Below are positions 24,879 to 28,045 of a stretch of DNA of 64,000 nt, piece by piece (position 1 is the first letter of the stretch; the number at the start of each line of letters is the position of its first letter). The stretch spans positions 1-64,000 of the forward strand of contig WBUR01000004.1 in assembly GCA_008933615.1 (NCBI GenBank), read 5' to 3'. Under the pieces are notes generated by a model that had not been told where the DNA came from, ran no database searches, and saw only the letters and a list, made by a program, of their open reading frames with translations. Source of the DNA: a bacterium. GTDB taxonomy: Bacteria > CLD3 > SB21. The position numbers were made by a program, and so were the translations under genes.

Positions 24879-26471
24879 TCATTTCCTCGGCAATCTCTCA
24901 TCCTGCATCGCACTTTGATAAACAAAATAAGCGACTATAGCCGCATTACGCCGCATGTCCTGCGCCACGATGTGGTCGGGCATGTCCATATTCGTATGCC
25001 AGGTTTTCGAACCGTATTCAAGCGGATCCTGTATGAACTGAAAGCCCGGCAGCCCCGCATCATCAAATGCAGCGTGATCCGTGCTCCCTGTTTTCTTTAA
25101 AGAGATTGTGGATGCGTCCCAAGCGCGAAACGGTTCAAGCCACTGACGAAAATTTTCGGCAGCTTTTTCATTTCCCTGCATATGAATCCCGCGAATTTGT
25201 CCTCCGCCGTTGTCCAGATTATAGTATACATTAAATTTTTCGTAATCCGGTTTTGTTGACATCGAATCCTTCAGATGTTTTGCAACATAATTTCTCGATC
25301 CTAACAATCCCTGTTCCTCCCCCGACCACAAACCAACGCGGATCGTTCGGCGAGGCTTGATGTCGAGTTGTTTTAAAATGCGGACGGCTTCCATCATGAC
25401 CGCTACGCCGGCCGCATTATCCGTTGCGCCGGTCGCGCCGTGCCATGAATCCATGTGCGCGCCGATCATCACAATTTCGTCTTTCAGGTCGCTACCTTCC
25501 CATTCTGCAATCGTGTTGTATCCTTTGGTGTCTTTATTCTGCCAATCGACCTGCAGGTCACATTCCAGCTTAACGTCTTTTCCGTTGATAATGAGTTCGG
25601 CAAGCTGATTAAATTGTTCCGCCGCTATCACGACTTGCGGCGCGATGAAGGGCGGCTTCACGTCGTACGGTTTTGGATTTTTCCGGCCGAACACATCCTC
25701 TTCATCAAGGAGCGGTGTATTGGCGCTTTGCACCGTTACTACTCCGGAATTTCTGCCCGGCATACGCGAACTGCTGGTTCCGCCGTCGAGGATCAATGCG
25801 GGCTGCTGCTCGTTGACCCAGGTGAAAATTTTTGAGCGTTCAACGTAGGCAGGATAAAAGGATGAATTCCTAAATTGCGCGCGATAACTTCCCCTGGGTT
25901 CGTCTTTCTGGGATGCATTCGCCATGGCTAATAATTCAGCATCCGTTACGCGTTTCGCGGCAGGTTCGAATGAGGGTTCTACTTTGATCTTCTCACCCAG
26001 CAGAACTATGGCGTTTTTCAATTTTCCGTCATATTTCGTTTTCACGGCTTCTAAATTTTTTTCATTGACATAAATGATTTTTCCTTTGACGGCGCCGATT
26101 GTTGCCGGTGACCAGGCTTTGGGATACGCGATAAGCTGAAAAGCATACGGCGCGGTCACGCCGGCGCGGAACGATTTGACATCCCAGCCGCGACCAAATT
26201 CGCCCCAAGCCTCAACCTGCGCTGTAAGGCCGTATGACTCAAGCGTCTTTTGCGACCACGCGTTGGCTGCCGCCATGCCTTTGGAGTTGGTCAGCCGAGG
26301 CCCGATAACATTGGTCAGTACATTAAGTAGTTCCATCACCTTGGAATTTTCTATAGCTTCTTTTTTAATATTGAAAGCAACCAGCGTATCAGCGGGATTG
26401 AATTGCGCGTGTAATTCAAATGAAAAAATGAACATGCACAGCGCAGAGAATAAAATAAGAAAACGTTTCAT
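24879..26471 (-). CDS. Secreted M28-family metallopeptidase (carboxypeptidase Q-like)
   Basis: 530 residues from the ATG at 26471 (AGAGG seven bases upstream). Signal peptide 1-22 (LFSALCMFIFSFELHAQ). A PA-like insert occupies about residues 120-290. The zinc peptidase domain follows, with the ligands in order: IGAHMDSW (His, Asp), GATDNAAGVAVMMEA (bridging Asp), WSGEEQGLLGS (catalytic Glu and zinc Glu), a later Asp in YNLDNGG and His in KKTGSTDHAAFDD. Members are exported dipeptidases or aminopeptidases with two zinc ions. It is convergent with the barrel gene at 24257-24850. Confidence 0.92.
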   Translation of the reverse strand: MKRFLILFSALCMFIFSFELHAQFNPADTLVAFNIKKEAIENSKVMELLNVLTNVIGPRLTNSKGMAAANAWSQKTLESYGLTAQVEAWGEFGRGWDVKSFRAGVTAPYAFQLIAYPKAWSPATIGAVKGKIIYVNEKNLEAVKTKYDGKLKNAIVLLGEKIKVEPSFEPAAKRVTDAELLAMANASQKDEPRGSYRAQFRNSSFYPAYVERSKIFTWVNEQQPALILDGGTSSSRMPGRNSGVVTVQSANTPLLDEEDVFGRKNPKPYDVKPPFIAPQVVIAAEQFNQLAELIINGKDVKLECDLQVDWQNKDTKGYNTIAEWEGSDLKDEIVMIGAHMDSWHGATGATDNAAGVAVMMEAVRILKQLDIKPRRTIRVGLWSGEEQGLLGSRNYVAKHLKDSMSTKPDYEKFNVYYNLDNGGGQIRGIHMQGNEKAAENFRQWLEPFRAWDASTISLKKTGSTDHAAFDDAGLPGFQFIQDPLEYGSKTWHTNMDMPDHIVAQDMRRNAAIVAYFVYQSAMQDERLPRK

Positions 26472-26530
26472 TGCGAACCTCTTCAAATGGGTAGATGACA
26501 AGTTGGAAGTGATTAAGATGATTAAATAAT

Positions 26531-26660
26531 GTGCTTATCGGGTTTACTCACAACGTCATGGTGAGCGGAGTCGAACCATGACCAAGTTTAGTAAAATCAG
26601 TCTTCGACTTCGCTCAGACTGAAGGGTTCTCTTCCATTTATGAGCCAACCCGATAAGCAC
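26531..26660. mobile_element. MITE-like element with terminal inverted repeats and a 10-bp target duplication
   Basis: A 130-bp noncoding unit. Its ends are inverted repeats of 20 bp with two mismatches (26531-26550 and 26641-26660; outer part GTGCTTATCGGGTT against AACCCGATAAGCAC). The direct repeat ATTAAATAAT flanks it exactly on both sides (26521-26530 and 26661-26670). Inside are two smaller dyads, GTCATGG/CCATGAC (26555-26582) and TCAGTCT/AGACTGA (26597-26622). There is no open frame for a transposase, so it would be moved in trans. It lies between the M28 peptidase and the ankyrin gene. Confidence 0.85.
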
Positions 26661-26712
26661 ATTAAATAATAAATTCGATAAAAAGGATTCATTTTCATTC
26701 TAAATTGAAAAA

Positions 26713-27543
26713 TTATTTTTTCGCTGAAGCGTCTGCAAATAGGTCAATAATCGTTTTGTATTGCTTAGATTTAGCAACATCGAGCGCAGTACGGTTTTTT
26801 TTATCGCGAGAGCGTATGTCCGCGCCGTTCATAAGCAGAAGCCGTACAGCCTCAATTCGGTTATATTCTGTTGCCAACATTAGGACGGTTTGCCCCTGAT
26901 CGTTGGCTGCCGTTAGATCAGCCCCATTTGTGAGGAGAACAGTAATGATGTTGGCTTTGCCTTTGATGGCCGCCTGCATCAGCGGCGTGAAATGAAATCG
27001 ATCTCGCGCGTTGACATCGCCACCGTTTTGCAGAAGAGATTTGATAATTTCAACCCGGTCAAATAGCACCGCAAACGTAAGCGCAGTCTTTCCGTCCTCG
27101 TCTTTTGCGTTGACCTTCGCGCCTTTCTTGATCAACGATTCCATCACATCCACCGGCGCATACCGGGCAGCATACATCAGCGCAGTCTGCCCGTTGGTGG
27201 CGAGGGCGTTGACATCGGCGCCTCTGGCCAGCAGCAGACGTACTAATTTCGAATGCCCGTCACGAGCCGCAATCATCAACGGCGTAGGCTCGTTGAGTTC
27301 TCCTTGAGAAGTTGAATCGTACGAACGTAAAAACCGGGCATTGGGATTCATTCCCGATGTCAAAAAAAGATTGGTTAAAATCGCATCGCCCTTGCGTAAT
27401 CTATGCAGAAAAGATTTTTCACTGTACTCAATGCCCAGGCGATCCAGTTCCTTTCTTGCATTGTCACGTTGATTCCCGCATCCAATTAAGATCATTAATG
27501 CGAAAAGGGCATGTAATTTAAAATTCAGAATCAAAAATTTCAT
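26713..27543 (-). CDS. Ankyrin-repeat lipoprotein
   Basis: 276 residues from the ATG at 27543, chosen because it begins a lipoprotein signal (MKFLILNFKLHALFALMILIGC, Cys at 22). About six ankyrin repeats follow (about 65-270), each with the pattern 'G.T.LM.AA..G....V..LL..GAD.N'; examples are TPLMIAARDGHSKLVRLLL and QTALMYAARY. The protein should sit in the periplasm, held by lipid, and bind another protein. It begins 7 bp after the stop codon of the flavin reductase gene, so the two are probably cotranscribed. Confidence 0.88.
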   Translation of the reverse strand: MKFLILNFKLHALFALMILIGCGNQRDNARKELDRLGIEYSEKSFLHRLRKGDAILTNLFLTSGMNPNARFLRSYDSTSQGELNEPTPLMIAARDGHSKLVRLLLARGADVNALATNGQTALMYAARYAPVDVMESLIKKGAKVNAKDEDGKTALTFAVLFDRVEIIKSLLQNGGDVNARDRFHFTPLMQAAIKGKANIITVLLTNGADLTAANDQGQTVLMLATEYNRIEAVRLLLMNGADIRSRDKKNRTALDVAKSKQYKTIIDLFADASAKK

Positions 27544-27550
27544 AATTGTT

Positions 27551-28045
27551 TTATCCACCATAACTCCATCCCGTATCACGCAATAACATCGGCTCATCTT
27601 CCGTTTCATTAAGGCGTGCGTTCACGATCTTCCCGATAACGATCGTATGATCGCCTTTTTTGATACGCTCCTCGACCGAACATTCAAGAGCCGCGTTTGC
27701 TTCCAGAAACAGCGGCGCCCCCGTCACGCCTGCTTCAAATTCACAGCCGTTTATTTTGTTCCCATCCAAATGAACTTCTTTAAAAAATTTTGACGCCATC
27801 GCCTTTTGGTTTTTTCCCAAAACGTTCAGCGCGAAACTTTTACTCTGCTTAACCGCTTCATTTGCCCAACTTTCATTTCGTATTCCCACCATCACGAGCG
27901 GCGGTTCAAACGAAGCCTGCGACACCCATGTCACCGTTGCCGCGGCGTACGGCATGGACTCTTTGGGATCGGTTGCTTTCGCGGTTAATATATATAAACC
28001 GTATTGAAACATTTTTAGCGCGCGTTTTTTATCGCTCAAATTCAT
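27551..28045 (-). CDS. Flavin reductase-like protein (FMN-binding split barrel)
   Basis: 164 residues with a strong ribosome site (AGGAGGATAGA). It has the flavin-reductase fold signatures: YGLYILTAK at the N-terminus, PYAAATVTWVSQASFEPPLVMVGI (FMN-phosphate strand pair), SKSFALNVLGKNQ, FEAGVTGAPLFLEANAALECSVEER and KGDHTIVIGKIVNA. Family members reduce free FMN with NAD(P)H or bind FMN as oxidoreductases. It lies 12 bp after the cysteine desulfurase gene and just before the ankyrin lipoprotein. Specific partner unknown. Confidence 0.88.
   Translation of the reverse strand: MNLSDKKRALKMFQYGLYILTAKATDPKESMPYAAATVTWVSQASFEPPLVMVGIRNESWANEAVKQSKSFALNVLGKNQKAMASKFFKEVHLDGNKINGCEFEAGVTGAPLFLEANAALECSVEERIKKGDHTIVIGKIVNARLNETEDEPMLLRDTGWSYGG

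What the first reader, a model, noticed from the sequence alone, without database searches (positions are those of the whole stretch)
26521..26670. MITE-like element with a clean 10-bp target-site duplication
A 130-bp noncoding unit with 20-bp terminal inverted repeats is flanked exactly by ATTAAATAAT on both sides. Two internal dyads would let the transcript or single strand fold into a branched structure. The intact duplication suggests a fairly recent insertion. No transposase is inside, so a partner element elsewhere in the genome is expected.
Basis: seen in the sequence. Interest (0 to 1): 0.6.

Follow-up and report, generated by a model that had tools for sequence, protein, structure and literature searches.

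The report
MITE that hosts RNA-guided insertion sequences
A short, gene-free jumping DNA, present in dozens of copies in this bacterium and its close relatives, really did insert here, and its internal hairpins are landing sites for larger jumping genes that appear to find them with a guide RNA, a nesting already known from one other bacterium.

Summary
Window 26530-26661 is a 132-bp non-coding element with matching inverted ends (15 bp perfect, about 22 bp in all), duplicated flanks and no ORF. It is a MITE: the own genome holds about 40 matching places, 51 complete copies were collected from four genomes of one family, and a congener has a clean empty site at exactly this position (single ATTAAATAAT). 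The duplication is 8 bp, not 10: across 51 copies only the inner 8 bases match reliably; the outer A/T are target preference and a terminal Y/R base of the element. No autonomous partner was found, so the mobilising transposase is unknown. The downstream non-coding region of one of these IS carries a 9-nt segment complementary to the DNA abutting that CT, as expected of an IS1111 seekRNA/bridge RNA; the guide step is inferred. Coxiella burnetii QMITE2, whose palindrome is targeted by IS1111, is a close published precedent, so this is a new member of a known kind.

The parts
26530..26661 (+). MITE copy (132 bp counting the terminal T and A)
26522..26529 (.). left copy of the 8-bp target duplication TTAAATAA
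   Evidence: empty site with a single copy in G006:C90
26662..26669 (.). right copy of the 8-bp target duplication TTAAATAA
26530..26551 (+). left terminal inverted repeat TGTGCTTATCGGGTTTACTCAC
26640..26661 (-). right terminal inverted repeat TGTGCTTATCGGGTTGGCTCAT (read on the - strand)
26555..26582 (+). internal hairpin 1 (GTCATGGTGAGCGGAGTCGAACCATGAC); 23-24 bp longer in the long form of the family
26597..26622 (+). internal hairpin 2 (TCAGTCTTCGACTTCGCTCAGACTGA), the usual landing site of IS110/IS1111-type elements in other copies
26613..26614 (+). CT core dinucleotide at which IS110/IS1111-type elements sit in 17 of 19 junctions in other copies (not occupied here)
26564..26565 (-). equivalent CT core in hairpin 1 (opposite orientation), used in the two remaining junctions
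   Evidence: L070; L082

Best explanation
This is one copy of an orphan MITE family. It was inserted by a cut-and-paste type (DDE-like, inferred) transposase acting in trans on the terminal repeats YGTGCTTATCGGGTT..., making 8-bp duplications of AT-rich intergenic targets (shown for the copies). The mobilising transposase has not been found. The internal hairpins serve as landing sites for at least two distinct IS110-family elements of the IS1111 type, which insert at a fixed CT dinucleotide (shown). They are most likely guided there by a small RNA from the non-coding region downstream of their transposase gene, which carries segments matching both strands of the hairpin next to the CT (complementarity shown for one element; use as guide inferred). 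The MITE thus spreads mostly intergenic target sites on which the guided elements can multiply.
For: Copies: 40 places in the own genome at E<=1e-6, 89 matching stretches in all at E<=10, 51 complete copies from four genomes collected. TSD: 32 of 51 copies match perfectly over 8 bp and 10 more with one mismatch, against 0.7% (perfect) and 4.2% (at most one mismatch) when left and right flanks of different copies are paired; the outer positions match far less. Empty site in G006:C90 with the flanks continuing on both sides. IS junctions: 19 of 19 lie in MITE copies, all at CT, 17 in hairpin 2 and 2 in hairpin 1; a MITE copy intact in G000:C10 is IS-filled in the congener's contig G006:C151. Transposase: PF01548 E 1.2e-12 and PF02371 E 7.6e-7 on the two fragments; full-length relative in G006:C421 matches NCBIfam NF033542 E 5.3e-69 and IS621 transposase in PDB. 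Guide: TCGACTTCG in the type-b non-coding region is the complement of the target bases abutting the core; the type-c element, which sits in a different repeat, carries TGTCATTCTG and TTTCAGAA matching its own target across the core, and only 1 of 5527 AG-centred control sites reaches both lengths.
Against: No autonomous element with these ends was found, so the transposase class is unknown. The guide match of type b alone is modest (67 of 5527 control sites have an equally long match anywhere) and its bottom-strand segment is only 5 nt. The complete type-a and type-b elements are missing from all assemblies (collapsed repeats), so their gene and RNA are known in pieces; type b comes from two contigs of G006.
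Confidence: 0.88

Rival explanations
1. REP/BIME-type repeat spread by a single-strand (HuH, RAYT) transposase rather than a MITE.
For: Strong internal palindromes; REP-like motif GAGCGnAGTCGAA.
Against: Copy-specific 8-bp duplications and precise terminal inverted repeats; the motif occurs in the own genome only inside these elements (30 of 30 hits at MITE places).
Confidence: 0.03
2. A conserved regulatory RNA or attenuator between two codirectional genes.
For: Strong fold; lies between the ankyrin-repeat gene and the M28 peptidase gene, both on the - strand; 21 of 24 checked copies lie between codirectional genes.
Against: Absent from the orthologous site of a congener; orientation relative to genes is mixed (9 same, 12 opposite); codirectional gaps make up 78-85% of gaps in the window, so 21 of 24 is expected; no Rfam match; no terminator found.
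Confidence: 0.04
3. The IS110-type elements are seen at MITE copies only because assemblies break there; other IS copies are hidden.
For: All junctions are at contig ends.
Against: All copies, wherever inserted, would break contigs and leave junctions; a search with both type-a ends over the whole assembly found 14 ends, all in MITE copies, to which short ends and type-b ends add 5.
Confidence: 0.05

Closest known systems
QMITE2 of Coxiella burnetii with IS1111 (PMC5896051)
   Same: 150-190 bp MITE, inverted ends, 7-11 nt duplications of unique sequence, internal palindrome used as insertion target by IS1111; 20 of 21 IS1111 copies sit in it.
   Different: Different host; sequences were not compared here. 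Here two distinct IS1111-type elements use the same site, the MITE targets AT-rich DNA, and guide-target complementarity was examined.
IS1111/IS110 elements guided by seekRNA / bridge RNA (PMC11187229, PMC11208160)
   Same: DEDD transposase, subterminal inverted repeats, long non-coding region downstream of tnp, RNA segments matching both target strands in IS1111 order.
   Different: Target here is a MITE hairpin; the RNA is predicted, not observed.
REP-targeting IS (ISPa11, ISPpu9, ISPpu10, IS621; PMC1525189)
   Same: Fixed-position insertion in dispersed palindromes.
   Different: The palindrome here is part of a transposing MITE rather than a free REP.

Membership tests
MITE | terminal inverted repeats at precise ends | tested here: met
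MITE | target-site duplication specific to each copy | tested here: met
   8 bp
MITE | short, non-coding, multi-copy, dispersed | tested here: met
MITE | mobility shown by empty site | tested here: met
   G006:C90
MITE | autonomous partner with the same ends (usual, not strictly defining; orphan MITEs exist) | tested here: inconclusive
   none found in nine draft genomes; assemblies are incomplete at repeats
IS1111 group of the IS110 family (the inserted elements) | DEDD transposase with PF01548 and PF02371 | tested here: met
   types b (in two fragments) and c; type a known only by its first residues
IS1111 group of the IS110 family (the inserted elements) | long non-coding region downstream of tnp | tested here: met
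   206 nt (b), 233 nt (c)
IS1111 group of the IS110 family (the inserted elements) | subterminal inverted repeats | tested here: inconclusive
   seen by eye in types a and b (GTTTTGATAAGTTT; CACGCTGwTCTTT) in the ends printed; not scored
IS1111 group of the IS110 family (the inserted elements) | GL-P----S(T)G motif | tested here: met
   GLVPSEHSSG in type c, motif from PMC11187229
IS1111 group of the IS110 family (the inserted elements) | seekRNA that co-purifies and guides insertion | not testable with these tools
   only complementarity computed

The most novel reading that the evidence does not exclude
A two-layer mobile system in which two distinct RNA-guided IS1111-type elements have each come to carry guides for the same MITE hairpin, so that MITE amplification continually creates new intergenic landing pads for guided elements.
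Probability: 0.4. Interest if true: 0.5.

Novelty: new member of a known kind. Interest (0 to 1): 0.35.

Why it matters
It adds a second host lineage besides Coxiella where a MITE palindrome is the home of IS1111-type elements, and offers a compact natural test of guide-target co-evolution: several guided elements, one repeated target that drifts, and free and occupied orthologous sites in congeners.

Tried and rejected
Autonomous partner: inverted pairs of the ends at insertion-sequence distance were looked for in the own genome, G003 and seven more genomes; the two candidates (C1:59834/61929 and C10:32786/34184) enclose ordinary genes (a membrane-protein-like and an aminotransferase-like reading frame, judged by eye) and are chance combinations of separate MITE ends. 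Rfam: no match. Plasmid collection: no match to the MITE. Bias for codirectional gene gaps: disappears against the window's own gaps. PF01548 search of the own genome found nothing because the IS bodies are not assembled. Exact ends across 84,980 GTDB species: only the two congeners MAG-300 and MAG-301.

Full report
Observation. The sequence around 26521-26670 is as described: ATTAAATAAT on both sides of a 130-bp unit, with ends that are inverted repeats and a fold far more stable than shuffles (z -8.7). Neighbouring genes, both on the - strand, are an M28 peptidase (ATG at 26471) and an ankyrin-repeat protein (26713-27609); the element lies in the gap and contains no gene.

It is a MITE. A search of the own genome (3.77 Mb, 97 contigs) with the 150-bp stretch gives 89 matching stretches at E<=10; with the 130-bp unit, 40 places at E<=1e-6, plus 33 in congener G006, 4 in congener G005 and 4 in G003 of another genus, and none in three further genomes of the family or two of the class. 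I collected 51 complete copies; lengths fall mainly into a short form (130-131 bp between the GTGC ends) and a long form (153-155 bp), which differ by 23-24 bp in hairpin 1. The copies lie in different flanking DNA.

The duplication is 8 bp. Comparing left and right flanks of all 51 copies, positions 1-8 match in 44-49 of 51, while the positions just outside match in 13 and 32. 32 copies match perfectly over these 8 bp and 10 with one mismatch; mispaired flanks do so in 0.7% (perfect) and 4.2% (at most one mismatch). The outer bases follow a rule of their own: the element ends in Y...R, and the target tends to be A-N8-T. In the window copy the terminal T and A happen to equal the target neighbours, which makes 8 look like 10.

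Empty site. In G006 contig C90 the flanks join across a single ATTAAATAAT (GTGATTAAGATGATTAAATAATAAATTCGAT). The window copy is thus absent there, while other copies are shared with G006 (C36 with C41, C1:157777 with C43), so the family was probably active both before and after the split.

No partner. Of 99 matches to the 20-bp end in the own genome and 92 to the 13-bp end, none forms an inverted pair around a transposase; contig-end copies all lead into the IS110-type elements described next, so a collapsed multi-copy partner with these ends is unlikely. The same 13-bp search in G003 and seven further genomes gave no insertion-sequence-sized pair. Which transposase moves the MITE is unknown; a DDE enzyme that makes 8-bp duplications is inferred.

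Many MITE copies stop at contig ends, always at the same place...CTTCGACTTCG-CT | GGTATGTAAA... and, from the other side...CTTCAGTCTG-AG | ACCTTATGTTAA.... These are the two ends of insertion sequences sitting at a CT dinucleotide. There are two different ones (a: GGTATGTAAAGAGTC...; b: GGTATGTAAATAGTC...). I count 10 left and 9 right junctions; all 19 are inside MITE copies, 17 in hairpin 2 and 2 in hairpin 1 in the opposite orientation. A search with both type-a ends in the whole genome gave 14 ends, all of them among these. The IS bodies are not in the assembly, which explains why a PF01548 search is empty.

Identity of the inserted elements. In G006 two contigs hold parts of type b: C151 the first 158 residues of its transposase after the start, C499 the last 83 and the non-coding end. 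They match PF01548 (1.2e-12) and PF02371 (7.6e-7). A complete third element, type c (1369 bp, about 360-aa reading frame), lies in G006:C421 in a different dispersed repeat; it matches NF033542 'IS110 family RNA-guided transposase' (5.3e-69) and the IS621 and ISCro4 transposases of known structure. The non-coding region is downstream of the transposase gene and the protein has GLVPSEHSSG, both features given for the IS1111 group in PMC11187229.

Guide. That paper reports that IS1111 seekRNAs hold a segment complementary to the top strand of the target 5' of one complementary to the bottom strand. In type b, read in the direction of the transposase gene, TCGACTTCG (complement of CGAAGTCGA that follows the AG core) comes first and CTGAG (equal to the top strand up to the core) second. 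The partial type-a region begins, at the contig end, with ACTTCG in the same place and has the same CCTGAGACTGCGG. Type c has TGTCATTCTG and TTTCAGAA, matching CAGAATGACA and TTTCAGAA of its own different target. Swapped pairs give only 7 nt (top) and 5-6 nt (bottom). Against 5527 AG-centred sites of the window, 67 reach the type-b top-strand length and 1 reaches both type-c lengths. So type c is strong, type b suggestive, and the position next to the core in both supports the reading. That the RNA exists and guides insertion is inferred from the family.

Comparison with what is known. PMC5896051 describes QMITE2 of Coxiella burnetii: 150-190 bp, 7-11 nt duplications, with a palindrome targeted by IS1111, 20 of 21 IS1111 copies being in it. 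REP-targeting IS110 elements are known too (PMC1525189). The present case is therefore a new member of a known kind. What is added: a clean empty site, the exact duplication, two IS on one site, an IS-filled against an intact orthologous copy (G006:C151 against G000:C10) and guide complementarity.

Limits. Contig ends inside repeats can be mis-extended by assemblers, so details of half copies are less certain than those of complete copies.

Noticed in passing
G006:C421:10500-14800 (L193): Complete 1369-bp IS110-family element (type c) inserted at an AG core in a different dispersed palindrome (GATTCTTTC-AG-AATGACA); a similar repeat occurs uninterrupted in the own genome near C30:11000 (L077).
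   Followed up: partly
G006:C608:10500-12500 (L135): A MITE copy holds an about 92-bp remnant with both ends of the type-b insertion sequence, an internal deletion derivative.
   Followed up: no
G006:C499:15500-17109 (L132): A MITE insertion supplies the last codons and stop of an amidohydrolase-like reading frame (...VHINECAYRVYSHTSW), which suggests occasional insertion into a gene's 3' end.
   Followed up: no
G000:C36:8738-8872 (L007) and G006:C41:1-74 (L141): Same insertion site but the short form in one genome and the long form of hairpin 1 in the other, suggesting conversion between copies, unless the contig end is mis-extended.
   Followed up: partly
L152, L156, L158, L159: Mini or decayed relatives with the same ends and different or shortened interiors.
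   Followed up: no
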